DNA from: Phytopythium helicoides
Lineage: Eukaryota > Oomycota > Peronosporomycetes > Pythiales > Pythiaceae
Assembly (NCBI GenBank): GCA_024867545.1
Contig: JANFNE010000013.1
Coordinates: 1,148,470-1,212,469 of the forward strand
Length of the DNA stretch: 64,000 nt
Reading direction: 5' to 3'
The notes beneath the pieces were generated by a model that was given only the letters and a program-made list of their open reading frames with translations, was not told the origin of the DNA and made no database searches. Both the position numbers and the translations under genes were made by a program. Shown here piece after piece: positions 9,565-57,470 of the stretch (position 1 is its first letter; each line of letters begins with the position of its first letter).

Positions 9565-11892
9565 CTATTCGTCCGATTTTTGGATCGCTCTGCCTTTGTT
9601 TGAAGCTGCCTGATTCGACCCTGCTCCTTGCAACACGTTGTTGCTGCTCCCTTTTTCCGGTCCATTATTGTTACTTCGAGGATTGTTGTTGCTTGAACCA
9701 GACACTGCAGGAAGGTGCAGCTTGCGGCTAGACCCCGTTTTACTCTCAAGACTGCCAACCCGATCCTGCAGCTTGGAAATTGCACTTTCGTAGAGTGTCT
9801 CCATCTGCTGAATCTGTTGGAGAGACTGCATTAGCAAAACTGAAAATTTTAGATAGGTCTGTGGAAATGTACATGCTCACCGTTTCCCGTGGCACATAGT
9901 CCGCATCTAAGTTCCTCTTTGATGCGGTCTCGTTCGCCTTCTGCATCTGCCAACTAAAAGCCACAGAGACCGGTAAATCCTCGATACTATGTATCACCAG
10001 GTCGAGGGATATCGCACCTTCTGTCTGGTTTTGTTAAGCTCCTTTCAAAATCTCGAAGCGAAGCAATCGCAAGGTCTCGTTCCCGTTCGCGCTCCTTCTG
10101 CTCCTGGAGCAGGTCATCCAAACGCTCAGCTGTGTCCTCTTCAAGCTGGAAAAAGCGCAGCTTGAATTCCTTCAACTCTTGCAAGAAGCTTAGCGCTTGC
10201 GTCTTTTCTGCGGCGAGCTCATTCTCGACCTCGTGCCATTCCTGTGAAGCCTCTTCTGACAGCTTTCGATAAGTTGCGACTTGCTGGTCGCACTTGCGCT
10301 TGATTTGCTCTAGGTCGCGTTCATGCTGAGCAATTAGAGCCTCGAGAGCTGCTGTTGGGTTTGCTTCTGATGGTAAATCTGCGTTGCTGTTGCTCCTGCT
10401 ATTGGTGCTCGTGTTGGAAGACGAGCTAGAATTGGAGCAACTGACTGCCTTGGCTGCTTGGTTTTCAAACTCGAGGTGCTGAATTCGTATGGAGGCCTTC
10501 AACAGTTGATTCTCGAGTGCATCAGCCCTCTCTCTTGCCTCCGTTAGCTCAGCTTGAGTTGTTCGCAAACGCTGCCCTTCTTCATCCAGTTGCTGCCTTG
10601 CATCTTCGTATAGTGCGCGATAATCAAGTACAGATAACACATTTTGCTGAGCACGCACGGCAACTTGCATAGCTCGTTGTCCGAATTGGATGGTTGATAG
10701 TGTCTCATGAGCGTCAGATGCTGCCTGTGTGACCGTGACTACAAGTGCGGTCTTGGCGTTTCCCCCCAGACTTGACTGTAGTAGTCGAGTGAGTTTGCTA
10801 TCGCGGTATGGTACGTGCCGTTGCTGATTGGCGAGTGCCGAAACGCAGTTACCCAAAGCTGATAGACTCAGATTGATTGCTTTGAGCTCGTTGACGTGAC
10901 GTCCAGTCACACGCGTCTTCTTGACGCGCTCTGAGCCTGCAAGGTCCACGAGAAAAAGATTGCTCAGCTTGACAACTTGTCGTGGCGGGTCAGTAGAGTT
11001 GTTGGATGGTGCAACAAGCTCTTTTCGCTCGATGCGGAGAATCAGAATGGCATGCGAGCGACTCGAATGCTCATTCATGGCTGTGCTTGACACCGCACGA
11101 TTTTCCGAGCCACGTCGAAGGAGTTCTAGGCAGTCGTCAACACTAGAGACGCTGACAATCGAGGCACCATCAAGGTATACACCGCGCTCGGGGTCTTCCC
11201 GAATGACAATGCCTGACGGTGCGATGCTCGGATCCAATAGATCAAAGATGCGCTCACAGTAAATCTGGACATAGCTTATGGCCACACTCGTTTTGGCACG
11301 TGCTCGCGTTTGTTCTACGCGCTGAATAATCAAGCATGTAGAACTGTTAGTGAGAGTGTTGCCAATGAAGAAACGAAAACTGACTCACGTTGAAGATATC
11401 CTCGAGTGCACGAGGGATGATGCCACGGCCATCACCTTGAGCGTCATCGTCTCGTCCGACCATTGTGTGGGTCTTGCCGGTCGAAGTTTGGCCGTAAGCA
11501 AGTACGGTGCCGTTGTATCCGTCGAGTACATCGTGAACTATGTCGTATGCAACGCGCTGGTACACACTTTCCTGGTCTGTTGACTCGTCCAAGCTCGCAT
11601 CAAAGGCGAACTTTCGATTGTCGGACAAGAAAACTACACTCTTTCCGTCCTGTTGCACACGTACGCATGGTCCACCACCACTAGCTCGACCACCTTTGTC
11701 TGTGAGGAATGTCGGGTCTTCGCGGTTGCTCCCGTTCGCTTCCGTACTTTCAGGAGATGCACTCTCGACTGCTTGCTGCAGCTGCAGCTGCACGTAATCG
11801 TCGTAGCTCAAGCCTTCGCGCTCGCGCTGCAGCAACGGTCTTAAGCGACAGAAAACCTTGACACGCTCTGCTGGTCGTGAAGTCGCCTCCAT
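9565..11892 (-). CDS. Kinesin with N-terminal motor and coiled-coil stalk
   Basis: Start ATG 11892 (MEATSRPAERVKVFCRLRPL). The motor domain holds all nucleotide motifs: P-loop GQTSTGKTHTM, switch I NEHSSRSHAI, switch II DLAGSERVKKT, and the neck-proximal SALGNCVSALANQQRHVPYR DSKLTRLLQSSLGG. An intron lies at 11388-11322 (gtgagt...ttcag), joining EDIFN to RVEQTRARAK in phase. After the motor comes a long coiled coil (VLDYRALYEDARQQLDEEGQ, then QLEEDTAERLDDLLQEQKER). One missing base near 10050 is needed to enter KELNKTRQK. Two further introns follow, and the last exon (QSLQQIQQMETLYESAISKL) ends at 9565 in an Asn/Ser-rich tail. It resembles the plant/protist ARK-type kinesins in motor and neck, but no armadillo repeats are seen. 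Role: a microtubule plus-end-directed motor, inferred from the N-terminal motor. Confidence 0.85.
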
Positions 11893-12078
11893 CTTCGTTT
11901 GGCGACTCAAAGTTTTGATCCAGTCTGCTCGGATATCAATAGTCCGCAACCGCCTGCAATAGGAAGAAATGGCTACACTTTCAATTGCAGTCAACTTCAA
12001 CATCATCAGCGCCATCAACTTGTAGGCTACAATTTCCTTTCATTCAGGATGGAACAGACATAATTTAGTGAATGCAAC

Positions 12079-15000
12079 TCACACAATCTCTAGCTCGCTC
12101 GCCTGACGCTGCGCGTGCATGGCGGCGGCGATGGCTACCTGCATCCCGAACGCGGTCAGTCGGATCCAGGGAGCACAGGCGGCGAATGAGCGTCCAGCCA
12201 TCTTTCTTGACATTCGCGGGCTGCTGTGGGAGCTTGCCCTCGCGCACTTGCTGCACGACGTTGTCCTCCGAGACGTCAGCACCCCACGGATATCGCCACT
12301 CAGAGCTTCCAACACGACCATGCCAAACGCATAGATGTCGGATGCCACAGGTTGGTGCATCATCATTCAGCAGCTCTGGAGCTGCCCAACGTGGCGTCAA
12401 GCCGTCCTTAATGGTGACTTGAGCACGACCGTCAGTTGTTACGTTGATCGCACTGGCCGTCAAATCACACACACCAACATTTGCAGTGTGGAGAAACTGG
12501 ATGCCAAGCGCTGTGTCCAACAACTGCGTCCAAGTAGCTGCATTCGGCTTCTTCCTCCCGAGCGTCAGCTTATCTAACGACTTGCCAGGCTTCTCCCAAA
12601 CGATATATCGCCCATGAGTGCCCTCGTAGCACCCGCCGTAGCAAGTGTACACGTTTGGGTGCTTGAGCTGGTAGAACGTCTCAATCGTGTCCGCAACGTC
12701 GTTCGGTGTCTCCATTTCGTGTGAATTGCGGACAAGAACGGATCGACCACGCCACTTGCCGGTGATCTCTTGCCCAGGACGAGCCGTGCACAGGGCTGGC
12801 ACACAATTCAGCTCGTACATCGGGATAAACCACTCGGGCAGAGGCGACCATGCCTCAAGCCCAGTTAGCCGGATCACCTTGAGCAGATTGGACGCGACCT
12901 TCGTCATGAGCTCCAGCTCTTCCACAGCGTAGCGATGACGTCTCTTTCGACAGCTCAAACTGCAAGAGCGCGTACGTTTCCGCAAGATCCTGTCCAGCAG
13001 CGCTCTGCACGCCACGTGGGTTCATCAGCTCGTTCTCTAAAGCAGTCGATGCCTTCTCCAAGCCACCCATCAAGATGGCACGCTGCTTTTGGTGGAGCTG
13101 TGCCCAGCGTGACTGCCACTGATACACTGTTGGTGGTTCTGGCTCGCCTGGTCGCTGAATCACCGGGCCAAACTCCGCGAGGCAGTCGTCGATTCCACGG
13201 TGCAGGTCGACGTACACCTGAATCTGCGCATAGTAAGCGATGAAGTCGTAAATGTCTCCAGTGTTTGGCTCTGCACACGACTGCAATAGCGCGTTGAACT
13301 CGACAATCCGGCGACCCAGCTTCTCAACAGGCTTCTTTGGCAGAGTTCCATGCTTGACCAACAATCCATGGATAGCCCAGCAGCGCGTGTACAAATGCAT
13401 GTTCATTTCCCGCCTCGCGAGCGCGCCGGGTACCGTGGTTCTTCCCACGAGCTGGAGGCACTGACGCAGCACACCTGCCATGTGCGTGTCAAAGGGAGGA
13501 CAGTTGATGGCGTCGACACCAGCTACAGTCTCCTTGACACTTGTCAAAGGCCGAAGAATCACAGCTTCCTCAGTCATAAGCCAATAAAGACTGCGCAGCA
13601 AATTTGCTGCCGTCGGTCTCTTCGCAGCAGCAGGTTTACATAACGCCTCGATGAGCCAGTATGTGCTCTCGCGGATATATGCTGGACGGCGCGGCAGCGG
13701 CTTGCCATACTGAATAGCAATGGGGCGTCCAGGGTCGTTCGCTTCGACAAGCAGCTCAAAGATACACTTGCCGAGGCAGTAGACATCCCAAGCTGTAGAG
13801 GGATCCTCCCGCGCGGATGACGGCCACATATGGTCAACAACCGCTTTATCTCTCGCGGTAGCATTCGGTCCAAGTAGCGGACAGCAGTAGCGAATGCTAT
13901 TGAGTTTGAGTGCGCGGTTCGGAGCGCACAACTCGACGTGATCCCACGAGAAGTTCCCAATCACAAGGCCGCGATCGTGGAGTGACAGAATAGCCTGTGT
14001 GATCTGGAAAAGGTAGTGCCATTTCTCGGCCGTCGGTAACCGCAGCAGCTTGATCGCGTTGACGGCTACCACAGGCTGGTGGAGATAAGCGCGCTTTCCG
14101 ATGTGTGATGCAGCGGTGACGCCAATATCGAACCCCCGTCCCCGCCGCGACATGAGGTCCATGCGAATGAGCATGGACTCTTCGTCTTCGTCTTCCATCT
14201 CCGTCACGGTGCGCAGCTGCTTGCCCTTCTCGTCATAGCGCACGTTGTAGTGTGCCTCAAGCTCGAGCGAGGGGACGGAACCAGTGCGGAGCGTCATGAC
14301 CTGCGATGCCCGAGATCTCGGTGATTCGGTTGAACGCGACCGGTGAGAAGCTGCAGCTCGCTCCTCGCTAGACGGTCGGGATACGCCATGAAGTTGTGCT
14401 TGAGCAGCGTGAGCAGCTCGTAGCTCTGGTCGTCGCCGTCTTCCGTGTCCAGCTCCGCGCGCAGCCGCGCTGTCGTCGTCCAGCAGCTCTCGAATTTCTT
14501 GAGTCGTCCAATGCGCTCTCGGATCATGAGCTCCTGCGGGGCCGTGAGCGCCTGGGATGTCGAATGCCGCGAACATGGCGTCCAGCAGCTGGTCGAAGCG
14601 GTAGATGAGGTCGAGATAGTACCCTGACTGCGCGAGCTGGAAGAGCACGCGCGCGTCGGCCTCGAAGGCCTCCAGCTCCGCAGCCATGCGCTCCGCCTGC
14701 TCGCGCATCACCCGCAGCGCTTCCGGCACGCGCGCCATGCGGTCGCTGAGGTCCTGAAGTGCTTCCAGCGCTTGGCGTGCAGCGGCTCCGGGCCCGTCAA
14801 TGGCCGGCGCGTTCTCGTCCTGGCAGCTTGGCCCAGAGCACCTGCCAGAACTCTGCCTCGTCGTCCGGGAAGAGCTCGCTGTGCTCGACGAGCGCGCGCG
14901 CCTCGCCCTCCTTCTCTCTCGGCGCCGACGGCGCGGGCTCCGGCGGCTGGGACCGGCGCGCTCTGGCTGCGCAGCCGCTGCTCCAAGGTCCTGCTCCTCC

Positions 15001-15815: not shown

Positions 15816-18601
15816 ATGGGCGAGCCCCATCTCAACACAGTTGCCAAGTTCCGAGGGTGTCTGGCACTCATGATCAACTACGAGCCCGCAGTTTTTCGCC
15901 TAGTGCACAGGATGCTGCGGGTGCTGCCCCACGACAGCCGGTTCGCTCAGGTGAAGGGCTGCAGCCCCGAGATGTGGCACGTGACGCTCGTGACCAAAGA
16001 AGAGAAGCGATTGCTAAGTCTGGAAGTGACAAAAGAGGCCACGAGAATGTCTGGGGGACCACTTTACCCTATTGGACTTGGCGCGAGCCGCAACTATCCG
16101 AGTGTGCTCTTTGTTGTCTGCGTGTGGCCGCGGGGACGAGCATTCCGAGCCAAGCACGGGCTGCCACCCAAGGACTTCCACATCACAGTCTCCGTCGACG
16201 ACGAACATGGCATTGACAAAAGTTACAGCTCATTGGTGGATCCGGAATGCGTCTACCTACGAGATATGGACACATTGAGAGCGCTCTCGAGGCAGCTAAT
16301 GTTGGAGGGCAAGCCGCAGCAGGCACTCCAAGTCGCGACCATTCTATGTGAAAAGTTTTTACCGAATGTGGGGGAACGTGAGTGGATGCGATTGGGAGAT
16401 GCAGCATTTGCGTCTGGCATTTTCAAGCTCGCGATGCTCAGCTACGCTCAAGCACTCTCCTCCGTACGAGCTAAAAGCGAGCTGGTGGACGCTGCTGTGG
16501 CAACTCACTGCCTCAGTCACATGGGATTGAGCGCCAAGCACACCGAGTATGGACCTGTGTTTGCAGATAGCGAGCTCGACCAAATCCCGCCCGAGCTTCA
16601 AGATCCCCTTTGTCGTCCGTGGTCAGTTCATCTCTTAGCTTCCGCACCAGAAGAAGACGATACTTGCGCCAAAACGTTGCTGCCTGCACATCCAACAGCA
16701 TCGCGCGAGCAGCTATATTCATTAGACTGGTCACCACTGCTCGGAAAGCCTGGGATTTTCAAGCTTCCCCGATTCTTCAGTTGGGTTATACCCATGCATT
16801 TGGCTGCCATGTCCACACCCCGCAACCGTGAAGATGTCCGCATTCTCGTTGAGTCTCTGAGTATTCGTCAAATTGTGACGCTCACAATCGAGAGTCCGCT
16901 AGAAAGCGAATGGTTTGAAGGACTTCATTGCGTTCAGCATACCTTCCTACCCACCGATAACTACAAGCCGCCATCTCTAGCTCAAATCAATATCTTCATG
17001 CACATCTGCTGTTCGGGTGCAAAAGAAGCAAGTACTCCTGTTCTTGTGCATTGTGGAGGGGGAAAGGGTCGTGCTGGCACCATGCTGGCATGCTATCTGG
17101 TTGCATTTGGCTTCAACAGGCCACCGACGGATATTTTGGAGATGACAGATTTTACCCCAGCGATGAACGCTGCAGAAGCAATCCAAGCTCTACGATCTAT
17201 TCGCCCTGGAAGTATTGAGACTACCGAGCAAGAGGCAGCAGTGCACGCGTATTGCTCGGCACTCTGGAAGCGCAGATCAATATTGCCTCGTGTTGTGTCA
17301 GAGCCGACTGGGACTTTTCCTAACATCTCTGGAAAACCGGTGGGCACAACTGACTTTCTTGTCTTATGTGGACTTCCGGGCTCTGGCAAGAGCTCCTTCA
17401 GTCGTGCTCTCATCAAGAGATCAAATGCAAGCGTAGTTGTTGGCCCGAATGGCAAGTCGAAGCCTGCTCAAGGAGCATGGATCGAGGTAGACAGCGATGT
17501 TGACGGCCGTGCCGGTTGCGAGCGAAGCGTGTCCACTGGAGGAAAAGGCAAGAAACTCATTCTCGATCGGTGTAATGGAACTCGAGAGGATCGCGAGTGG
17601 TTTCTGAAACTTGCATCCTCGTGGAGCTCGCACCCAACTGCCGTCTGGTTTGATTTCCCAACCGAGATATGCGAAGCTCGAGCTATGACGCGGAACAACC
17701 ACCCTACTTTACCCCCAGGTTCAAGGGTGCGGCGAGCCATCGAACACCATGGGAAATCGTTTACTCCACCAGATGTCAGCGAAGGTTTCCACTCGGTTGT
17801 ACGCATCACGTCGATGGACGCGGCACTGGCACTTGTGGATACGTTGTCCGCGTCACTTCCTCTCATGAAGTTTCCTCGCACTCCGCACCTGATTGACCTC
17901 GGTGGTGCAACAGGTGACGACATTGTTAGCATTCGTGACAATGGCCTCACTGATGGAAATAGGGCAGCAGCATGGCCCGAGTCACTTGTTCCCCCTGGCA
18001 CGGCGATCATAGTGACTGAAAAGCTCGACGGAGCAAACCTCGGTATCTCTTTGGCGCCACACGCACTGGGGATTCATCATCCAAAACCGATCACACTACA
18101 TCACCTCCGAGTATCATCGGCAGTTCCAAGCTCTGGACACGTTTATTGCGGAGCACCGTGAGTCGTTGTTTGCCATCCTGAACCGGGACCCTCTCTTCCC
18201 GGTAGGTTTGTGCTGTACGGTGAGTGGCTCGCAGCCACGCATTCGGTCGAGTACACCTCGCTGCAGAGCCTGTTCTACGCGTTCGACCTATACGACCGCG
18301 AGACGCGGCAATTCTGGGACCGGCGGTCCCTCGAGATGCTGCTGGACGCGTGCGGTGCGAGGTTTCCTCTAACTCCTGTGATCTTCGCTGGCCCAAACCT
18401 GCCACCAAGACCAGACCTGGAGCGTCTTTCAAGACGAGAGTCTCCGTTTTGCGATGGTGTTGGCGAAGGGATCTACTTGAAATGGGAGCGAGGCGGGGTG
18501 GTCGTGGACCGCAGCAAGGTCGTGCGTGGAGACTTCATTGCTGGAATGAGCACTGGACGAAGGGGGTGTTGCGCCTCAACCGAGTGGTGCAGCTAAACTA
18601 G
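15816..18601 (+). CDS. Multi-domain RNA repair protein: 2H phosphoesterase, phosphatase, P-loop kinase, RNA ligase
   Basis: The start is taken at ATG 15816 (context caccatggg); an upstream in-frame ATG at 15732 is possible. Domains in order, with rough residues: a 2H phosphoesterase domain with the two HxTx motifs (MWHVTLVTKEE about 54; DFHITVSVDD about 122); a helical, TPR-like stretch (LSRQLMLEGKPQQALQVATI) at 150-240; a dual-specificity phosphatase with the HCx5R loop VLVHCGGGKGRAGTM near 411; a P-loop polynucleotide-kinase-type domain, LCGLPGSGKSSFSRAL near 522; and a covalent nucleotidyltransferase (RNA ligase, Rnl2-like) with motif I EKLDGANLGISL near 735, then IIQNRSHYITSEYH, VLYGEW, FYAFDLYD, motif IV GEGIYLKWE and motif V VDRSKVVRGDF. 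The C-terminal ligase part needs frame corrections near 18045 (extra base), 18195 and 18555. The parts together could trim, phosphorylate and seal broken RNA ends. Confidence 0.85.
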
Positions 18602-18834
18602 CAAATAAATCTCTCGTTGATTCGCGAACCCTCACTTGTGTCTGCCTCCGACTTTGTCCAATCATGTTGGTCTCGGTAGAGATTTAGCGAGGTGTCGAGC
18701 TTCGCTGTGAATGAAGACACCCCACCGCCGTGATGTGAGCAAGTACGCGCATTTCCGATACAACATGCAAGTCAATCGGCAGTGGGTCCACGTGCAGAAA
18801 CATCGTGAGAATCGTATGTCATCCTTTGACAAGC

Positions 18835-21800
18835 ATGGAGGCGAAGGTGGGAGCATCAGTCCATGGCGGCGCGGACGTGAGCGCTGCGACCAGGGATAGG
18901 ACGCCATTGATGGTCGCGGCGTTCGAGGGAAATCTGGAGGCGATGGAGAGTTTGCTGGACCAAGGCGCGGCCGTGAACGCCGTAGACAAGAGGAGAAACA
19001 CGGCGCTGATGGCTGCGACGAACCTGGAAGCAGCAAAACTCTTGGTGGAGCGAGGCGCTGATCTGCATGCTGTGAACGACGACGGGAACACGGCCTTGAT
19101 GGTAGCAGTTTGGAAGCTCAGATGGGAGGTGGTCAAGTATTTGGTGGACCGCGGCGCGGATGTGAACGCTGTCAACAAGTTTGGACTGACACCGCTGGCA
19201 TATGTGGCGGAGTACGGTGAGCTGGATCTCGTGGGGCTATTGGTAAACAGAGGCGCGCACGTGAACGTCGTCGACAATAGCAACTACACGCCACTCGCCC
19301 GTGCGATACAGCGTGGCAAGTTGGAGATCGTGACGTTCTTGGTGGACCGAGGTGCAGGCGTCAACACTTTGGACAGCGACGGAAGAACTCCTCTTGCCCT
19401 CGCGGCAGCGAGGGGTGAATGGAGGATTGTGGAGCACTTAGCTGATCGAGGCGCAGACGTGAATGCCGCAGATGGCAACGGGCTGACACCGCTGATGCAT
19501 GCAGTCGATAAAGGGAATCTAGATATGGTGAAGTATTTGCTGAAACGTGGCGCAGTCGTCAACAGCGTTGACATCAACGGCAATACTCCATTGGTATATG
19601 CAGCATCAACTGGCGAGCTCGAGGTGCTGGAATACTTGATTGAACATGGCGCAGACGTGAATGCTATTGACAATGGTGGTATGACTGCACTCATTTGTGC
19701 GGCAAAGTCGTTGGGTAACTCGGAAGTGATGACGAAATACTTTCTAGATCGAGGTGTAGACGTCAACGCAGTGGACAAGGATGGCATGTCAGCTCTGATG
19801 TACGCGGCAGACAGCAGTAACTTGAAAACGGTCGAGTTGCTGGTGGACCGAGGTGCGGATGTCAACATAGTAGACAACAACGGGATGACGCCACTGATGC
19901 GGGCGATAGTTCGTTGCAAACTTGAGATCGTGAAGTATCTAGTCGACCATGGTGCAGATGTGAATCTCAAGACTACCCTAGGACAAACAGCAGTGCATCA
20001 AGCAGCAAAGCGCGGCTATATTGCTATTCGAGACTTCTTGCTTCAACATATCAAGGTTGCGCCGTCTTGGAATGGGTCAAGAAGAGGCATGCAGCTTACG
20101 AATTTGTCCTTAAGCTCACTGAAACTCCACTCAGCGTCGAAAAGTTGGGCTATCTCTCCGTTCGACATTGCTTTGGTTCGACATGACCACACCAAGACGA
20201 TCGGAGGAGAGTATCACGCCAAGTGGCTTGACGCCGATGTTGTTATCAAACTGTTCACACCAGAAGCGTCAGCCTCGACATTTGTAGATGAAGTAACCAC
20301 GTGGCACCAATTGCGACACCCAAACGTCATCAAGTTGTATGGAGCGTGTGGCGTCGGTCACTCGTTCTTTGTTCTGGAGTATGCGAGCAATGGGTCTGTG
20401 GTGGAGTTTCTCGCCGAATGTGAAAAGCGAGGTGAGGGACGGAGGCCGTGGAAGTTCATGTATGAAGCAGCATTGGGTCTCGCATATTTGCATGAGCGAG
20501 GTATTGTGCATGGTAACCTGCGCAGCAGCAATATTTTGGTGGGAAGTGATGGTGTGGCGAAGTTGGCTGACTTCGGATTGGCGGCAGCGTCATCGCAGAC
20601 TATCGATAACGCAGCCTCATCAGGTTTCGGCTCCGTGCGTTGGCAGGCTCCTGAGCAATTGAAGGCGGAGAAACGTTATTTGCTTCAGACGTTTACTCTT
20701 TGGGTCTGTGCATTGTGGAGGCAGTGACAGGGCGGGAACCGTGGGAAGGAAAGAGCGATTTGGCGATTAGACTCTGTAAGAGCCGATGGCTTCCTGGGAC
20801 ACACTCCACCAACCCGTTTGGTCCCAACCGTCTGGATGCAGACTTCGGGCAATTTATATCCAACGTGTGCGCTCCAGCTCCGAGTCATCGATTGCCAGCA
20901 GTAAAGGTTGCTCGATTACTTGAGCACTTCGCTGCAAAGGAAGCCAGAGAGCAGAAAACATCACACCTTGAGGTAATCGGCGAGGATGTCAACGAGTACA
21001 AAGCCGGAGAATTGCAGCAACTCTTAGCAAAAGTTCGAGGTGTGGCATCATTGCACAATGCTCGGAATCCGATGTATCAAGTCATTCAACAAGAGATCGA
21101 AGCGATTCACAGACATTTCGAACGCGGAAAACGTCAACTCGAGACATTCGTGGCATATCATTCGCTTCTCGTGGATTTGGTGGATATACTTCAGCCAAGA
21201 CCACTTCGAGACCAAGTCGGCTCTCTTTCATCGAAACGAGCGACTCACAACAATTTGGCAGTGTTTCGGCGTCGTATCAACAAATTATGGATGATGATCG
21301 GCGAATCTGGTGTTGATGTCCGGGAGCGAGAGCTGCGATGGAGCCTACAGCGCAGCAAACAGTTCGAGTTGTTGATTTCCGATGTATCCGAGACGATGAC
21401 TGTTCTGAGTCCAGATGGATGACGAAGAAACCCAGTCGGAACTCGTCACTTTCCTCAAGACGGAAATTGAGCACCACGCATCCAGTTACACTGACGATCA
21501 ACTTGCCGTGATGAAAAAAGCGTACGAGGACTGCTGTCAGGGCGAGTGGGACAAGTCTGTGACGACTGTTCCAGTATGGTTTCTGCCATGGCATGAATTG
21601 GTGATCAACCGAATGAATCGAATTGGCGAAGGCGGGTTTGGTGACGTGTATCTCGCGAAATGGCTTGACTCGGAGGTCGTCGTGAAAGAGGTGAAAACAC
21701 TCGGATCTGGCAATAACAACAACAACGATTCCATGGTATCCACTTGGTTTCGGAGTGCTTCACGATGGTCTACGAGTATAAAAGACAATACACATGACTC

Positions 21801-22944
21801 ACGGAAGGCTCTTCGTGCGCTATTCGAGCAAGAAGTGAACGTGTGGTTTGGACTGAGCCACCCGCATGTGGTCCGTCTATTTGGTGCCTGTCACGTCGGC
21901 ACTCCGTTTTTCGCGTGTGAGTATGCTGGCGGTGGGTCACTTGACAAGTATTTGCGACGGCATCCGGACGAGATCTGGATCAAGTTGCATGAAGCTGCTC
22001 TCGGTGTGCTGTACTTGCAATCACGAAACATCATCCATGGTGATCTCAAGTGCAACAACATTGTGGTGGGTACTGATGGGAAGGCGAAGGTGACTGATTT
22101 CGGCTTGAGTTCGTTTGAAGAAGATGGGAAAGAAGCAAAGCTGAGTGGTGCTTGGCAGTGGGTGGCACCGGAGTGTATTTTGCATGGCGCTTCGGAGCGA
22201 TCGTTTGCATCGGATGTATACTCTTTGGGGATGTGTGTTGTGGAGGCGCTTCGCGTGGTGGAGCAAGTGAAGCTGGATGAGACGGATCGTGAAGGATCTC
22301 TGCCACTGCCATGGGGAAACATGGACAACCTCATAGTCAAGCACTATGTGGCTCGACAGAAGTTACCCGAGCGTCCTGAGTTATGTACGGATGAACAATG
22401 GAAGCTGATTGAGCGAATGTGTGCGCACGAGCCAGCCGATCGCATCTCGATCTTGACTGTGGTGGACGAGCTTCGTGCGTTCACACAATGCAATGAAGGC
22501 AGCGAAAGTGACGAGGATCAACCATATAAAAAGATACCAGATCCAGACTCCTCCTCAATGACGGAAGTGATCATCGAGATGGAAGCTATGTGCCACCAGC
22601 TCTACGACAACGCATACTCTCGTGATGTGAAGGTGCTGTGTCGGATATTCGAGTTGTTGTGGAGTCGACTGTCACGTTTGATGTATGGAACTGATAAACT
22701 CGACGACACTGACACCAAGCGCCTGGGAGCTCTCGTCGATCAAGCTCGAGAGAGCACAGAGGGCCTTGAGAGCCAAAAGGATACGCTGTTTGCGTTCACG
22801 GAGACGGCTCTGCGAGGGTACGCCTTGCATCGATATTTGGACAAGGTGGTGGAAGCGGGGGATTGGAGCGCTGATGACGACGTTGGTGCGTGGCGAGATC
22901 GGTGCTGGGAGTTGCTGACTCTGGGAGGTGAAGTCTTGAGTTGA
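18835..22944 (+). CDS. Ankyrin - pseudokinase - kinase protein (TKL-like)
   Basis: The start is ATG 18835 (MEAKVGASVHGGADVS). Twelve ankyrin repeats cover residues 15-415 (TPLMVAAFEGNLEAMESLLD to TAVHQAAKRGYIAIRDFLLQ). Kinase 1 starts near residue 440 with no GxGxxG loop, has VVIKLF, and carries HGNLRSSNIL at 20506-20520: Asn in place of the catalytic Asp, with DFG kept. A linker follows (about 21000-21420). Kinase 2 has a full glycine loop (IGEGGFGDVYLAKW), VVVKEV, HGDLKCNNIV and DFGLSSF, so it is probably active, and is followed by a helical tail ending at 22944. Two frame corrections are needed: one missing base near 20680 (kinase 1 C-lobe, YSLGLCIVEAVTG) and one extra base at about 21412. 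The extra base is supported by the paralogue at 27537-29175, which reads TVLSQMDDEETQSEL without a break. The order pseudokinase then kinase recalls animal JAKs but arose in a different kinase group. Confidence 0.8.
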
Positions 22945-27536: not shown

Positions 27537-29175
27537 TTAATGTTTACCGCTACCAAGGGATAGCAGTTCCCAGCACCGATCTCGCCACGCATCAACGTCG
27601 TCATCAGCGCTCCAATCCCCCGCTTCCATCAACTTGTCCAAATATCGATGCAAGGCGTACCCTCGCAGAGCCGTCTCCGTGAACGCAAACAACGTATCCT
27701 TTTGGCTCTCAAGCGCCTCGGTGCTCTCTCGAGCTTGATCGACGAGAACTCCCAGGCGCTTGGTGTCAGTGTCGTCGAGTTTATCAGTTCCATACATCAA
27801 ACGTGACAGTCGACTCCACAACAACTCGAATATCTGACACAACACCTTCACATCACGAGAGTGTGCGTTGTCGTAGAGTTGATGGCACCTTCCTTCCATC
27901 TCGATGATCACTTTGGACAGTGAGGACGGATCTGGATCTGGTATCTTTCTATATGGTTGGTCCTCGTCCTTTTCGCTGTCTTCGTTACATTGTGTGAACG
28001 CCCAAAGTTCGTCCACCACAGTCAAGATCGAAATGCGATCGGCTGGCTCGTGCGCACACATTCGCTCAATCAGCTTCCATTGTTCATCCGTACACAAATC
28101 AGGACGCTCGGGTAACTTCTGTCGAGTCACATAGTGCTTGACGATGAGGTTGTCCATGTTTCCCCATGGTAGTGGCAGAGGAGCCTCGCAATCCATCTCA
28201 ACCTGCTTCACTTGCTCCACCACGCGAAGCGCCTCCACAACACACATCCCCAAAGAGTACACGTCCGATGCAAACGATCGCTCCGAAGCGCCATGCAAAA
28301 TACACTCCGGTGCCACCCACTGCCAAGCACCACTCAGCTTTGCTTCTTTCCCATCTTCCTCAAACGAACTCAACCCGAAATCAGTCACCTTCGCCTTCCC
28401 ATCATTACCCACCACAATGTTGTTGCACTTGAGATCACCATGGATGATGTTTCGTGATTGCAAGTACTGCACACCGAGAGCAGCTTCATGCAACTTGATC
28501 CAGATCTCGTCCGGATGCCGTCGCAAATACTTGTCAAGTGACCCACCGCCAGCATACTCACACGCGAAAAACGGAGTACCGACGTGACAGGCACCAAACA
28601 GACGGACCACATGCGGGTGGCTCAGTCCAAACCACACGTTCACTTCTTGCTCGAATAGCGCACGAAGAGCCTTTCGTGAGTCATGTGTATCGCCTTTTAT
28701 ACTCGTAGACCATCGTGAAGTACTCCGAAACCAAGTGGATGCCATGGAATCGTTGGTGGCGTTGTTGCCAGATCCGAGTGTTTTCACCTCTTTCACGACG
28801 ACCTCCGAGTCAAGCCATTTCGCGAGATACACGTCTCCAAACCCACCTTCACCAATTCGATTCATTCGATTGACCACCAACTCATGCCACGGCAGAAACC
28901 ACACTGGAACAGTCGTCACAGACTTGTCCCGCACACCCTGACAGCAGTCCTCGTACGCTTTTTTCATCACAGCAAGTTGATCATCAGTGTAACTGGATGT
29001 ATGGTGCTCAATTTCCGTCTTGAGGAAAGTGATGAGTTCCGACTGGGTTTCTTCATCATCCATCTGACTCAGAACAGTCATCGTCTCGGATACATCGGAA
29101 ATCAACAACTCGAACTGTTTGGTGCGCTGTAGGTTCCATCGCAGCTCTCGCTTCCAGTCATCGACACCAGATCCG
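27537..29175 (-). CDS. TKL-like kinase, 5'-truncated relative of the tandem-kinase gene
   Basis: One unbroken frame, closely matching the second half of the 18835-22944 protein from GGSGVDDWKRELRWNLQRTK onward. It has IGEGGFGDVYLAKW, VVVKEV, SRNIIHGDLKCNNIV, DFGLSSF, WVAPECILHGASERSFASDV and a C-terminal helical region (ALHRYLDKLMEAGDWSADDD). It lacks the ankyrin repeats and first kinase. The frame remains open upstream to 29327, but there it runs through the dispersed repeat, so the true start is uncertain: either a start inside the repeat, or an internal Met such as MTVLSQMDDEE. The catalytic residues (Lys in VVVK, Asp in HGD, DFG Asp) are intact, so the kinase may be active. The homology edge at about 29175 looks like a duplication breakpoint. 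Confidence 0.8.
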
Positions 29176-29320
29176 CCGATTATTTGCTGAATCCACGCGG
29201 GACGGTCGATGGCTCGGTTGGTTGGCCTTGCTTCCGTTGTTCTCTGTAACAGTGCAAGTCCTCCCGAATCAACTGGCGGCGGAAACGAGGATTGGCGAGT
29301 TTCACAGGCTGGGTCTCGCC
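29176..29320 (-). repeat. Dispersed repeat copy 2, abutting the truncated kinase
   Basis: Inverted relative to copy 1 at 2190-2330. Read leftward it gives VKLANPRFRRQLIREDLHCY then REQRKQGQPTEPSTVPRGFS, directly followed by the kinase sequence. The frame of this copy is cleaner (no internal shift for about 50 codons), suggesting a once-coding element. Its upstream extension to about 29560 stays open (YSDEDNASAYLNVTNSGRCC) but is unrecognised. Confidence 0.55.
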
Positions 29321-29645
29321 GCAACAACGACCCGAATTAGTCACGTTGAGGTAAGCAGACGCGTTGTCTTCGTCGGAATAATCCAGTTGCTCGGAGCTCG
29401 GAGCAGCGTGACCCTGGGTCGTGAACTGGGAAGCGCGGCCGCTTGGATTCCATCTTGAAAATCGCTGATTGAGGGCGGAAAAGTGGTTACGGTCGAATGG
29501 ACAACTTTGCCGAAGGTTGCAAGTTGAAATCCTCGAGCTTTCATGCATCCCATGTTGCATGCAAAACGTATGAGTGGGCGGGGCGTCGTCCTCCTCTCTC
29601 TAAAGGTCATTTGAGCAGCCAGGACTCAGCACTTGTATTGCAGAC

Positions 29646-31637: not shown

Positions 31638-34600
31638 ATGAGCCGCGCGAGAGGCACCAGCCGCGCCAACAGCGCCTTCCCGGGCGTCACGGGCGGCTCG
31701 CCAGCCACGCAGCGCGGCGCGAGCGAGGACGCGCGCTTCCCGCCGAATGACCCGAGAGGAGCCAAGATGCCCGCGCTCAGCGCGGCCGAGAGAGCCTACA
31801 TGGAGCGCAAGGCCAAGGAGGCGTCGCTCGCGCTCATCGACCACGCGCACACGCTCGACGGACCCGTCCAGTGGCACTACACGGGCAAGTTCCGCGGCAT
31901 CCAGATGTACAGAGGAGAAGGTAGCTTCGAGAACGCCAGCACGGCCGGCACCGAGTTCCTCTGCGGCGTCACCACCATGCTGGGCACCATCGAGGAGGTC
32001 TCGTGGTTCTTTGACCAGCCCACAACCGACAAGATGCGCGCGCGCCAGCCAGACGACGTGCTGGACGCCGGGCGTGCTGTACTCGCTCGTGCACGGACAG
32101 CTCGACAACCCGTTCTACCGAGTGGCCGTCAAGTACCAGTCGTACGAGGGGCCCTCGCGCTTCTCGCGCGCTCGAGACTACTGCTTCCTAGAGTGCCAGA
32201 ACACGTTCAAGCACGCGTCAGGACGCAGAGGATGGGTGCTCAGCATGCACTCGATCAAGCTGCCCAGCTGCCCTGAGATCGACGGCATCGTGCGAGGAAG
32301 CATGTACCACTCGGGCTACGTCTTCGTCGAGGCCGAGCGCGAAGGGTACATGGACGTCATGCACAGTCTCCAGATCAACTTCAAGAGCAATAGCCGACTC
32401 CCGCACTTCCTGCTCAATGCGGCGCTCAAGCGACGCATTCTCTCGGTTGTCAAGATCAGCCGCGAGATCCAGATGGCGCGTCTGGGCCGCCAGGGGCTGC
32501 TGAAGAAGAAGGAGCTCATGCCCAAGAAGTCCCGCTCGCAGTGCCTCAACTGCTCGCGCAAGTTCACGCTTTTTGTGCGCAAGACTCGTTGCCGAATGTG
32601 CGGAGAGGTCGTATGCCAGGCATGTGCGCCGGTCATGGAGGTGGATGTGCCTGGACGCCCACTCACCAAGACGCGGGTTTGTTCTCGATGCTACAGCTCA
32701 TCGCCTACGTCAGATGAGAGTAGCGATGACTTCGTCGCAGCGGCTCGGCTGCAAGCGACACCAACCTACTCTCAGATTCGTCGCGATGAAAATGAGACGC
32801 ACTACTCGATGATCCGACGAGATGAGAACGGGACGCACTACTCTTTCTCGAAGCGCGACGAAAAGACAAACAACTACACTGATGGAACGGAGCCGAAGCC
32901 CAAGATCGACAAGCGCGATGGCAGCCTGAGTGACGATGATGACGATCTGGAGGAAGATGGAGAAGAAGAAGGTCTGCTTGAGCAGTCGATGTACAGTGTG
33001 TTTGCTCAGTCGAGGTTCACGCGAACCTCCGCCGATTCGATGGTGCTGCCTGAAGCTACGGATGCTGAGCCGGACGATATCAGCGAAAGTGACATTGAGC
33101 GCTACAGCGAAGTCAGCAGTGCTTTCTGGAAAGAGAGCAGTGTGTCCAACTCGGCTTGGAAAAAGCAAAGTGCGATGGAACCACTTGATGAAACGAAGAA
33201 ATTTGAGCCTGAAGCATCTCTGCCAGCAGTATGTTTGGAGCAAGCCACTTTCTTACACCAGAGGATACCGATGAAGAGCTCGACAAGCGCGCAAGGCGCT
33301 ACAACCCAACCCTTTCAATCCGTGATTTGTCTCGCGAGTATGGGCGAGCTACTCGCCCTGTTCGCCCTTCGACTACTTCTGCTTCGCGAGGCAGTCTTCC
33401 ACCTCCACCACCTCCCCCGTACTCTCCTACCAGCGAAGATGCCGAGGACCGTGATGACAGCTTTAGAGAGTTAGATGCAAGTGCTCTTCGAGAGCACAAT
33501 ACTAAGCAGCCTCACAAAAATACGGACGGCCCGTTGATGTCAGAGAGGAAAATGTTTGCCGCCGACACGACCGTGGAGAACGACATGAACTCGATCAACA
33601 AGGGGGGTCGGCTGACTACTGGAGTGAAGCGTGGAACGACTGGCAAGATGGAAAACACGTTTTTCGATCCTAGTCTGCGGGATACAACGGGCTCTGCGAT
33701 TCTGAACCAGGTTCGCGCCAACCGAAGCCGTACCATCCAGTTCTCGTCAGAAGGTGATTACCGGTCCGAGGAGGCTATGAATCAGATTGCCGCGGAGCAT
33801 GCGAAGCGAATGGCGGATATCAAACGCTTGCAAGAGCTTGCTGATGAGGCTGAGAGAGCTTCGAAGCGCGAAGTAAGCACGGCGAGCATCCCGACCTCTC
33901 GTTCGTCGTCCAACAGAGGTACGGAACGTGAGAAGAGCAGTGGAAGTATTGCATCGTCGCGCTCATCGTCCAACAAGCTGGGAAGCCCTGAGCTGCGACC
34001 GGGCAGTACGACGTCATCTCGTTCTTCGTCAAACAAACTCAGCAGCCCGAACGAGCGCCCCGGCAGCGTCGCTTCTTCTCGATCGTCTTCAAGCCGGAGA
34101 ACGACGCAGGCGAAAGCGAGCTCCATTCCTCCGCCCGCGCCCGAGGTTAATGTGCCCGTTCCGAGTCCACCCGTATCATCTAGTGGCTCGGATCGGGGAA
34201 GTGACAAAAAGGAGGAAGTGGAGGTGAAGAGTGTGCCGAGCAACCCCAAACTCCTCTCGATTCGCCGGACTACGTCGACTCAAAGCCGGTCAACTGATAC
34301 CTTCTCCCAGGACTCGGTTCGTGTGAGTGGACCGCCTGTCGACCACATGGACGATTTGGAGTTTAGCACCTTTGGTGGTGCGAGTCCAGAGCTGCGAAGC
34401 GCTCCGCAAGAAGACCCACTTGCTAGCCCTGCGGTTGGCCCAATTGCTGGTTCACCCTTAGAACTCGATGCTCTTGCGCTAGAAAGTGAGAGCACGATCA
34501 TGGAGGACCCGTCATCCCCTCGGCGGTCCACTGTTGTTCTCCTTGAGCGTATCAGCTCTCCACGCGAATCAACCATGTTCGACGAGGACCTCATCAATCG

Positions 34601-46234: not shown

Positions 46235-47728
46235 ATGCCGCAGCGGTACCAGTACTCGCGGCGTCCAGAGCAGCCGTTCGCAGAGGCCTTCCCGCCACTC
46301 TCGACCAACGAGCACCGCGCCATGCAGACGGAGGCGGTCGCGGGCTTCCGCACGCTCTTCCCCGCCGTCGAGGCCGCTGTGCAGGCCGCGGCGGACGGTG
46401 AAGTCTTCAGCGGGAGCGGCAACAAGTCACTCGCCATGTGGACGTCAAGCGTTGTCTTCGGCACCATCGAGGAGGTCGCAGAGCTCTACTTGGGCGGCGA
46501 CGGCGTGCCGCTCATTGCCCCAGGATACCAGCGCACCAAGCAGCTGTATGCGCTGCAGGACCCGACCAAGGACGCTCCGTTCTGCTCGACCAGCCTGCAG
46601 TGGGCGCTGTGGAAGTCGGGCACGACGCTTGCCGACCCGCGCGACTTGTGCTTCGTCGAGCACATGAATGTCTTCAAGGATAGTGCGAGCGGGCGGCGAG
46701 GGTGGGCTCGCGCTGGACGCTCTGCGAACCACTTGTGCTGTCCGGCGTCGCAGCACCCAGACGGACCTGTGCGCTCGACACTGCTGCTATTTGGAAGCAT
46801 CTTGCGCGAGACGGACAAGTTCGGTGTACTCGAGTGTGTCACGTTCGTGGAGGTCGACTCGCGAAGTGGGCCGTCTAAGGAGCTAATTGCTGGTTTCAAG
46901 CGCGCCGCACACATGCTCAACCACACGCTACTCGTCATGCGTCAATTCCACCAGAAATTCTCTCGACTCGATGGCAACTTCCTCAGCACGGACAGCAACG
47001 ACTGGAAGCTGCAGCGTCACATCAGCGACGCGAGCGAGGCAAGCAGCAGCGACGCTGGCGGCAGCGGAATCAGCTCAAGCAAGGATAGCAGCGGCAGCAG
47101 CCGCAACTGCCGGTCGTGCGATGAGCACATTTCTAAGTGGACGCCTGCCAAGCGCTGCCGGTTCTGTGATGCAGTACTGTGCAAGAAATGCATCGAGCTG
47201 TTTTACCAGGACGGGCAGCTCACCACCAAAAATTACCGCGTGTGCACACCATGTGCGCTTCGCGTGGCTGCCGATGGGAGGGGTCAGCGTCCTCGTGGCG
47301 CCACAAATGGGTCTGCACGCTCGCTGGGATCAGGGCTCCCGCCTTCGTCTCGGCGCAAGCCGCCGTCGTCATCCAGCAGCAAGGGGTCACTCGGTAGCGC
47401 ATCTGCTTCAGTGCGCTCTGCTGACACCGAGTCCGTTGGCGACGCTACTGAAATGCTCGAGCAGTTGGACCTGCCGGCCAGCCCTGCCAACAGCACAACC
47501 AGCAGTTCGCACTCGAGTGGCCGCCGCCGCGCACCCGTAGGCCCTCAGCGCAGTGACAGCACGCACAGCCAATCCTCAAATGGATCCAACAGTAGAACAG
47601 TGAAGGCTCGACGGCCGTCGCTGGCGATGGCACTGGAGCTCGAGCCTGAACGCCCCGCACCCGTGGACTTGTCGTACCTGACGACGCTCGTGACGCCACG
47701 CCATGCGCCGGCAGATGTGGCGATTTAA
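46235..47728 (+). CDS. START-FYVE-like protein 6, intact, single exon
   Basis: An uninterrupted 497-residue frame from ATG 46235 (MPQRYQYSRRPEQPFAEAFP). START-like domain at residues 20-240: VVFGTIEEVAELYLGGDG, SLQWALWKSGTTLADPRDLC followed by FVEHMN, SGRRGWARAGRSANHLCCPA, TLLLFGSILRETDKFGVLEC. The zinc finger lies at about 290-350: NCRSCDEHISKWTPAKRCRF, CDAVLCKKCIELF and NYRVCTPCALRV, all eight Cys present and, unlike its neighbours, not split by an intron. A Ser-rich tail follows, then RPAPVDLSYLTTLVTPRHAP at the C-terminus. Best reference copy for correcting the damaged paralogues. Predicted role: lipid-binding adaptor on endosomal or other membranes. Confidence 0.9.
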   Translation: MPQRYQYSRRPEQPFAEAFPPLSTNEHRAMQTEAVAGFRTLFPAVEAAVQAAADGEVFSGSGNKSLAMWTSSVVFGTIEEVAELYLGGDGVPLIAPGYQRTKQLYALQDPTKDAPFCSTSLQWALWKSGTTLADPRDLCFVEHMNVFKDSASGRRGWARAGRSANHLCCPASQHPDGPVRSTLLLFGSILRETDKFGVLECVTFVEVDSRSGPSKELIAGFKRAAHMLNHTLLVMRQFHQKFSRLDGNFLSTDSNDWKLQRHISDASEASSSDAGGSGISSSKDSSGSSRNCRSCDEHISKWTPAKRCRFCDAVLCKKCIELFYQDGQLTTKNYRVCTPCALRVAADGRGQRPRGATNGSARSLGSGLPPSSRRKPPSSSSSKGSLGSASASVRSADTESVGDATEMLEQLDLPASPANSTTSSSHSSGRRRAPVGPQRSDSTHSQSSNGSNSRTVKARRPSLAMALELEPERPAPVDLSYLTTLVTPRHAPADVAI

Positions 47729-56675: not shown

Positions 56676-57470
56676 GTTGACGAGGCAAAGGCAGAGGCCT
56701 GGACCAGCGAGGTGAGCGAGGGCGAGGCGGTGGATCGGAGACTGAGCTATCAGTGGAGACGCCACGCCGGACGCGGCAGGGGCGCTCCGTAGATGTCAGG
56801 TCGCGGCTGTTTCGCGTTGTGTAGTATGTGATATCTACGGTACACTGCAAGCACTGCAGAGTTCAGAGCAGAGGCGGGTACTGTACGGTGGGTACGAGCG
56901 CTACATCGTCGCTCCCAGCGGAAAAATAGATCACACGCTTGCGGACAGCGCGGCGGTGGCGTAATGCATGTCGACGGAGCTGCTGGTGGTCGAAGGAGCC
57001 GTCGGGAGTGGAAGAGAGCGCTCCGCCGCAGCTGTGGCGACACATGCCGAGGGTCATATACCAGTTCTGGCATCTCACAGCTCGCGTATATATCTTTAGT
57101 CGCGTCTTTAGTCTGTACGTAAATATTGACTATCTGGAAGTCATTTATACCTAGAAGTCAAGCAAAGTGTCCAATCGACATCGTCCTCTTTTGGGTATTT
57201 TCTACCTGAAATAAGACCGTTTGCGCCGACTGAAACCCAGGGTGGGTTCGCTTTCTGTGCCAACGTTGAACCCATTGCAAGTGGTACTGGACTGGACCGG
57301 TACCGTCCCTTCGCCAATATTTTCCATCGGAGACCGCCCGACTGTCTCGTCCTCAGTGGCGAATCGCCCGCCCCGCCCCGCTCCCGCCTCACGCCACCTC
57401 ACTCCGCCTGCTGCGGCTGCAGGCCACTCGCCAACTGTCCCCGCGGCTTCTCCAGCTCCCGACGACTCCG
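56676..57470. promoter_or_regulatory. Divergent promoter region between two receptor kinases
   Basis: About 795 bp. The middle is AT-rich (57080-57200) while both ends are GC-rich leaders. The frame open on the + strand across 56151-56792 is a shadow of the receptor gene. No gene is supported. Confidence 0.4.

What the first reader, a model, noticed from the sequence alone, without database searches (positions are those of the whole stretch)
15816..18601. One protein carries five parts of an RNA (or nucleic acid) break-repair line
Seen: two HxTx motifs of a 2H phosphoesterase, an HCx5R phosphatase loop, a GxxGxGKS P-loop and a KxDG ligase site with motifs III-V, all in one frame after small corrections. 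Known: 2H domains open 2',3'-cyclic phosphates, P-loop kinases phosphorylate 5' ends, and ligases seal; in fungal and plant tRNA ligases the order is ligase-kinase-phosphoesterase. Here the order is reversed and a dual-specificity-phosphatase-like domain and a helical region are inserted. Inference: a self-contained repair or splicing ligase distinct from Trl1, perhaps acting on cleaved tRNA or stress-cleaved mRNA.
Basis: partly seen in the sequence, partly recalled or inferred. Interest (0 to 1): 0.85.

Follow-up and report, generated by a model that had tools for sequence, protein, structure and literature searches.

The report
Five-part RNA repair enzyme, known family
A water-mould gene encodes one protein with the parts needed to trim and rejoin broken RNA; the enzyme is real and intriguing, but it belongs to the already catalogued 'Swiss Army Knife' family of fungi and oomycetes, and its last part is split over several reading frames in this assembly.

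Summary
ORF 15816-18161 (+, 781 aa) carries Pfam 2H-SAK (1e-15), a helical region, PTP-SAK (1.3e-56), a PNK-like kinase (AAA_33, 3.6e-12) and the start of an Rnl2-type RNA ligase. The rest of the ligase runs to 18601 in other frames, motifs intact. The relative P0001 (79% identical) has all of it in one 895-aa chain; its model matches DUSP23, PNK kinases and T4 Rnl2. This is Pfam's 'Swiss Army Knife' family, with 211 homologues found and 120 listed: a new member of a known kind. One unusual point: the DUSP23 Asp65 place is Asn in 118 of 120 members, while Glu134 and Gln138 places are invariant. The genome shows no RtcB but has Tpt1 and a plausibly split Trl1-like set, so the protein is probably an accessory RNA-damage repair enzyme rather than the tRNA-splicing ligase. 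The broken ligase frames are probably assembly indels; recent inactivation is not excluded.

The parts
15816..18161 (+). Main open reading frame (781 aa from the ATG at 15816; stop 18159-18161): 2H, helical region, phosphatase, kinase and first part of the ligase
   Evidence: 79% identical to P0001 over 92% of the query
15864..16199 (+). 2H phosphoesterase domain (2H-SAK), HxT motifs from residues 55 and 122
   Evidence: PF22547 1e-15, residues 17-128; first His in 106 and second His in 109 of 120 homologues, 7 and 4 of the 120 having a gap there
16242..16766 (+). Helical region, tentatively TPR-like
   Evidence: Helices at residues 111-258 in the model of P0001; family profile columns 140-205 match TPR chains at whole-sequence E 1.5e-5 to 2.6e-4, but no single stretch passes alone; no Pfam TPR family matches more than 2 of 52 members
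16767..17243 (+). DUSP23-like phosphatase domain (PTP-SAK): Cys413 in HCGGGKGRAG; Asn382 at the DUSP23 Asp65 place; Glu468 and Gln472 at the Glu134 and Gln138 places
17358..17867 (+). PNK-like P-loop kinase domain and linker (Lys525, Asp561, Asp584)
   Evidence: AAA_33 3.6e-12, residues 515-631; kinase module of bacterial Pnkp at 4.7e-7, 28.4 bits, far under that full-length model's cut-off; PDB 9drz, 9d8a and mammalian PNKP by profile
17868..18059 (+). Ligase N-terminal FPRTPHL stretch and motif I (TEKLDGANLG, Lys736), first frame
   Evidence: 54/63 identical to P0001; Lys in 120 of 120
18070..18189 (+). Ligase piece with QNRSH, second frame
   Evidence: 32/38 identical to P0001
18201..18545 (+). 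Ligase piece with motifs III (YGEW), IIIa (FYAFDLYDR), IV (EGIYLK) and V (SKVVR), first frame again (motif names recalled)
   Evidence: 103/115 identical to P0001
18545..18601 (+). Ligase C-terminal piece (NEHWTKG...), third frame, to the stop at 18599-18601
   Evidence: 14/16 identical to P0001; ORF end

Best explanation
The locus encodes an oomycete member of the 'Swiss Army Knife' family: a single-chain RNA end-healing and sealing enzyme for breaks that leave 2',3'-cyclic phosphate and 5'-OH ends. Inferred cycle (domain chemistry recalled from known relatives): (1) the 2H domain opens the cyclic phosphate to a 2'-phosphate/3'-OH end; (2) the PNK-like kinase phosphorylates the 5'-OH; (3) the DUSP23-like domain removes the leftover 2' (or 3') phosphate through its cysteine, with the conserved Glu rather than the usual loop Asp as proton donor; (4) the Rnl2-type ligase, which prefers plain 3'-OH and 5'-phosphate ends, adenylates itself at Lys736, activates the 5' end and seals. 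Step 3 would do within the chain what Tpt1 does after Trl1. The helical region is probably a TPR-like scaffold or contact surface. The likely role is repair of tRNA or rRNA cut by ribotoxins or under stress, beside a separate tRNA-splicing machinery. Shown here: domains, folds, catalytic residues, family. Inferred: substrate, order of steps, biological role.
For: 2H-SAK, PTP-SAK and AAA_33 over their Pfam cut-offs in the window ORF; RNA_ligase 9.5e-26 in P0001. In A1 (52 rows that I chose from the 120 listed) 52 have PTP-SAK, AAA_33 and RNA_ligase and 51 have 2H-SAK. Phosphatase Cys and Arg, P-loop Lys, kinase Asp and ligase Lys are each in 120 of 120 listed homologues. The P0001 model (pLDDT 89.2, pTM 0.88) matches DUSP23 and T4 Rnl2, Naegleria RNA ligase and PNK kinases. 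Accessory role: no RtcB, but Tpt1, endonuclease, kinase-CPD and DUF7920 proteins in the genome. DUSP23 uses Glu134 as primary acid, by passages of PMC5965843 and PMC9038691. A ribotoxin setting for horizontally spread RNA ligases is discussed in passages of PMC11258130.
Against: I saw no biochemistry of a SAK protein. The ligase frame is broken in this assembly, so this copy may not make a full protein. In 7 of 120 homologues the second 2H His is Tyr and in 7 more the first His is another residue or part of a different count (not gaps), so the 2H step may be dispensable in some. The phosphatase lacks the usual loop Asp, so its activity and substrate are uncertain. The TPR label is weak.
Confidence: 0.75

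Rival explanations
1. The ligase part of this copy is truly inactivated by recent frameshifts, leaving a 2H-phosphatase-kinase healing enzyme that ends at 18161.
For: Three frame changes within about 540 bases and none seen in the 2.3 kb before; the Tpt1, DUF7920 and kinase-CPD genes elsewhere in the assembly lie in unbroken frames. Two of the 120 listed homologues, both shorter (P0105, P0115), show no RNA_ligase domain.
Against: The ligase pieces are 84-90% identical to P0001, the upstream parts 72-83%; between P0001 and P0002 the same stretches are 73-80% and 55-71%, so there is no sign of relaxed constraint. The ankyrin-kinase gene starting at 18805 also changes frame inside a conserved domain without room for an intron, which points to assembly indels in this region.
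Confidence: 0.2
2. It is the tRNA-splicing (and stress mRNA-splicing) ligase of this organism, a replacement for Trl1 or RtcB.
For: No RtcB match in the genome (the control rang in 9 of 14 prokaryote genomes); the domain set would suffice in principle.
Against: The genome has a kinase-CPD protein, two DUF7920 proteins whose family model is nearest to fungal tRNA ligase domains, and Tpt1. No downy mildew, Albugo or Saprolegniales name appears among the 120 listed SAK homologues although DUF7920 proteins of such species are in the database; 91 of the 211 hits were not shown.
Confidence: 0.08
3. It is a DNA-end repair enzyme, as many database names ('ATP dependent DNA ligase', 'Dna ligase iii') imply.
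For: Names; the kinase resembles mammalian PNKP, a DNA repair enzyme by its PDB title.
Against: P0001 matches PF09414 and none of DNA_ligase_A_N, _M, _C, while a DNA ligase of the same genome matches all three (that protein also matches PF09414, at 1.1e-7). The best ligase fold hits are RNA ligases. A 2H domain suits 2',3'-cyclic phosphates, which DNA cannot form (recalled).
Confidence: 0.05
4. The phosphatase domain is a signalling, sensor or non-catalytic phosphate-binding domain attached to an RNA repair core.
For: DUSP23-like fold; the loop Asp is Asn in 118 of 120.
Against: Cys, Arg and the Glu134 and Gln138 equivalents are in 120 of 120, as expected for an active DUSP23-type enzyme; in nearly all listed homologues it sits in one chain with 2H and kinase domains.
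Confidence: 0.15

Closest known systems
Swiss Army Knife (SAK) proteins, Pfam PF22547 (2H-SAK) and PF22784 (PTP-SAK)
   Same: Same domains in the same order; 36-79% identity to the 120 listed homologues
   Different: The window copy has its ligase spread over several frames; otherwise an ordinary member
Fungal/plant tRNA ligase Trl1 (ligase-kinase-CPD; order recalled)
   Same: Works alike: 2H-type opening, kinase and adenylating ligase in one chain (recalled)
   Different: Order reversed, Rnl2-type ligase, extra phosphatase and helical region
Bacterial Pnkp and T4 PNK/ligase systems (recalled)
   Same: Kinase and phosphatase healing, then sealing; weak kinase match to the bacterial Pnkp model (4.7e-7)
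   Different: Phosphatase is DUSP23-like rather than metallophosphoesterase or HAD type
Human DUSP23 (VHZ)
   Different: Asp65 place is Asn in 118 of 120; loop is CGGGKGR; part of a five-part chain
Stand-alone bacterial RNA ligases
   Same: Match P0001 within residues 596-895, mostly 652-893, at 32-38% identity in the 80 loci returned
   Different: No match to the 2H, phosphatase or P-loop parts in these 80; 26 of the 80 that I put in a tree fall on one side of a 100/100 branch

Membership tests
Swiss Army Knife (SAK) family | 2H-SAK domain | tested here: met
   PF22547 58.5 bits, cut-off 27
Swiss Army Knife (SAK) family | PTP-SAK phosphatase domain | tested here: met
   PF22784 191.4 bits, cut-off 27
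Swiss Army Knife (SAK) family | P-loop kinase after the phosphatase | tested here: met
   PF13671 47.2 bits, cut-off 27
Swiss Army Knife (SAK) family | C-terminal RNA ligase in the same chain | tested here: inconclusive
   Met in relatives (P0001 91.4 bits; 52 of 52 rows of A1); in the window the pieces are present but in several frames
Swiss Army Knife (SAK) family | RNA healing and sealing activity | not testable with these tools
   Needs biochemistry
Trl1 tRNA ligase | N-terminal Rnl1/Trl1-type ligase, then kinase, then CPD | tested here: not met
   No PF09511 or PF08302 row for the window ORF (E up to 1) or P0001 (E up to 0.01); order is 2H-phosphatase-kinase-ligase
Rnl2-like RNA ligase | KxDG, III, IIIa, IV, V motifs and Rnl2 fold | tested here: met
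ATP-dependent DNA ligase | DNA_ligase_A_N, _M and _C modules | tested here: not met
   None in the P0001 table; all three in a DNA ligase of the same genome
DUSP23-type phosphatase | CX5R loop, Glu134/Gln138 pair and secondary Asp65 | tested here: inconclusive
   Cys, Arg, Glu and Gln kept; Asp replaced by Asn in the window and in 118 of 120 homologues
RtcB | RtcB domain in this protein or genome | tested here: not met
   0 matches of PF01139 in the own genome, six frames without intron modelling

The most novel reading that the evidence does not exclude
SAK is a self-contained broken-RNA repair machine that leaves a clean junction: its built-in DUSP23-like domain, working with glutamate alone as proton donor (the usual aspartate having become a fixed asparagine), strips the 2'-phosphate before sealing, so that fungi and oomycetes carry a second, Tpt1-independent RNA repair route beside tRNA splicing, used against ribotoxins or stress cleavage.
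Probability: 0.35. Interest if true: 0.6.

Novelty: new member of a known kind. Interest (0 to 1): 0.35.

Why it matters
The family is common in basidiomycetes and Phytophthora/Pythium-type oomycetes among the listed homologues, yet many copies are labelled DNA ligase, phosphatase or hypothetical protein. If its predicted chemistry holds, it is a one-chain RNA repair enzyme whose phosphatase step stands in for Tpt1, and it would tell what RNA damage these organisms meet. The alignment gives precise residues to test, notably the Asn/Glu arrangement of the phosphatase.

Tried and rejected
Introns as the cause of the ligase frame changes: rejected, the pieces abut. I first noted the kinesin break in the window (12018-9987, minus) as another indel; the translations show roughly 70-80 bases without kinesin-like sequence between the halves, so an intron is likelier. 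A programmed frameshift is not favoured: by my reading of the listing 118 of 120 homologues have the RNA_ligase domain in the same chain. Fungus-to-oomycete transfer is undecided: in the ligase tree (76 rows) 20 of the 21 rows I labelled oomycete form a clade beside two Rhizoctonia/Ceratobasidium rows at 90/73, and the other (P0026, unnamed source, my label) falls elsewhere; in the FastTree (120 rows) the 27 rows I labelled oomycete, window included, form one clade; neither rooting settles it. A phage source: only the ligase part is found, in 6 of 50,697 phage records. The PF08303 search of the genome found nothing, but its control rang nowhere, so it says nothing. P0001 has no PADLOC match. 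The fold of the helical region alone was not searched, and the 2H domain does not appear in the rows shown. The prokaryote scan used only two peptide patterns and returned 80 of 363 relatives, so it does not prove that no full-length SAK exists there.

Literature: one search gave one paper, whose only Swiss-army-knife hit is an unrelated reference title. Searches gave none. One search gave 4 papers, none on this subject by its listing. One search gave one (PMC11258130; in the passages seen, RNA ligases of rotifers, no SAK protein). One search gave 9 papers that cite Burroughs and Aravind 2016; I looked at passages of one of the nine (PMC9931718). So no paper on SAK proteins was found, within these searches of an incomplete library. 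Burroughs and Aravind 2016 (10.1093/nar/gkw722), which I recall as the source of the SAK name, is not held; I saw it only as a citation. Of PMC5965843 and PMC9038691 I saw passages only; of the other papers the listing only.

Full report
What is there. The window is a piece of contig C6 of an unnamed 49-Mb, 100-contig genome. The named relatives of its proteins are oomycetes, at about 43-55% identity for the SAK protein's oomycete hits and the DUF7920 hits of Peronosporales and Pythium type, so no call names the species. ORF 15816-18161 encodes, in order, a 2H-SAK domain (residues 17-128), a helical region, a PTP-SAK domain (318-476), an AAA_33 kinase (515-631) and the first part of an RNA ligase with KLDG. 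It is the only long match in the genome; the one other hit is a weak match (E 7.4e-4) to the phosphatase part.

The ligase and its frames. Windows of 12 residues of P0001, matched against the three forward frames, show the ligase continuing in a second frame, back in the first, then in a third, ending at the stop at 18599-18601. Taken apart, the pieces are 86%, 84%, 90% and 88% identical to P0001, against 72-83% for the upstream parts; over the same stretches P0001 and P0002 are 73-80% identical in the ligase and 55-71% elsewhere. So the ligase shows normal constraint. The ankyrin-repeat kinase gene from 18805 also switches frame near 20,680 inside its kinase domain. Against this, three other genes looked at in the genome are in unbroken frames. 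I favour assembly indels but cannot exclude recent inactivation.

Family. A search of 5.8 billion proteins (7995 candidates scored) gave 211 homologues at E 1e-3 or better, of which 120 are listed. By my reading of the listing, 118 of 120 carry PF09414, 116 of 120 PF22547, and all 120 PF22784 and PF13671. Named sources include Phytophthora, Nothophytophthora, Pythium, Globisporangium and Lagenidium, many Basidiomycota including Kwoniella, and Pseudogymnoascus. No downy mildew, Albugo or Saprolegniales name is among the 120, though DUF7920 proteins of such species are in the database. This suggests a dispensable gene, with the caution that 91 hits are not shown. The 80 loci returned out of 363 prokaryotic relatives match only residues 596-895 of P0001, and 6 of 50,697 phage records match only the ligase part.

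Catalytic residues. Across the 120 listed homologues the phosphatase Cys and Arg, the P-loop Lys, a kinase Asp and the ligase Lys are invariant; the 2H histidines are kept in 106 and 109. DUSP23 is the nearest solved phosphatase by single-sequence search and by fold; with the family profile a bacterial-type entry, 25xa, scores slightly higher. The DUSP23 loop Asp65 aligns with Asn in 118 of 120 members (Asp in P0081 and P0097), while Glu134 and Gln138 align with invariant Glu and Gln. Passages of PMC5965843 and PMC9038691 state that in DUSP23 Glu134 is the primary general acid and Asp65 secondary. I infer that the SAK phosphatase is an active, Glu-dependent enzyme. The residue numbering rests on the alignment and my own counting.

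Setting. The genome shows no RtcB match, one Tpt1 (5.9e-57), tRNA-splicing endonuclease matches (best 7.8e-18), a protein with an AAA_33 kinase and a weak CPD match (24.1 bits, cut-off 23) but no ligase match, and two DUF7920 paralogues with borderline RNA_lig_T4_1 matches (29.1 and 29.0 bits, 28.0 and 27.9, cut-off 28.3). The model of a relative, P0122 (pLDDT 90.6), is nearest to fungal tRNA ligase domains (6n0t, E 1.5e-10, TM 0.65 by target). Together these look like a Trl1 pathway split over two proteins, which is inference. SAK is thus unlikely to be the splicing ligase.

Mechanism and verdict. Best reading: 2H opens the cyclic phosphate, the kinase phosphorylates the 5' end, the phosphatase clears the remaining phosphate and the Rnl2-type ligase seals. 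Domains, folds and residues are shown; substrates, order and role are inferred. The family is known to Pfam, and this copy is an ordinary member with a frame problem. Interest is moderate and rests on the untested chemistry and the Asn/Glu arrangement.

Noticed in passing
L012:4816-7632 (C24), L003:901-2478 (C52), L004:901-2478 (C5): A kinase protein with a weak CPD match and no ligase match, and two DUF7920 proteins with KENG and other ligase-like invariant residues in their family; the model of relative P0122 is nearest to fungal Trl1 ligase domains. A possible split tRNA ligase of oomycetes; 63 homologues of the DUF7920 protein were found, the named ones oomycetes.
   Followed up: partly
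L014-L093, for example L014:1123-3687: In the 80 loci with stand-alone bacterial kin of the SAK ligase, 64 have an ATPase like that of L014 (AAA_15, DUF3696) and 45 a small gene like that at L014:2435-2986 (starts LIDTNV; PIN-like by recalled motif, no Pfam match); strict order ATPase, small gene, ligase in 36. In L014 these two match PADLOC HEC-03B (8.1e-81) and HEC-03A (1.1e-5), and HNH and SIR2-like genes follow. The ligase may be an unlisted part of that candidate defence system.
   Followed up: partly
18805-21422: Ankyrin-repeat protein kinase gene whose kinase domain changes frame near 20,680.
   Followed up: partly
9987-12018 (minus): Kinesin gene in two ORFs, probably separated by a short intron of roughly 70-80 bases.
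   Followed up: partly
12065-13015, 21415-22944, 27537-29327, 54675-56765, 58105-59058, 60077-60922: Several more ORFs of the window match protein kinase domains, with FYVE matches at 31747-33474 and (under the cut-off) 46235-47728.
   Followed up: no
homologue list: Many fungal SAK proteins carry the name 'ATP dependent DNA ligase' (one 'Dna ligase iii'), which the domain evidence does not support.
   Followed up: yes
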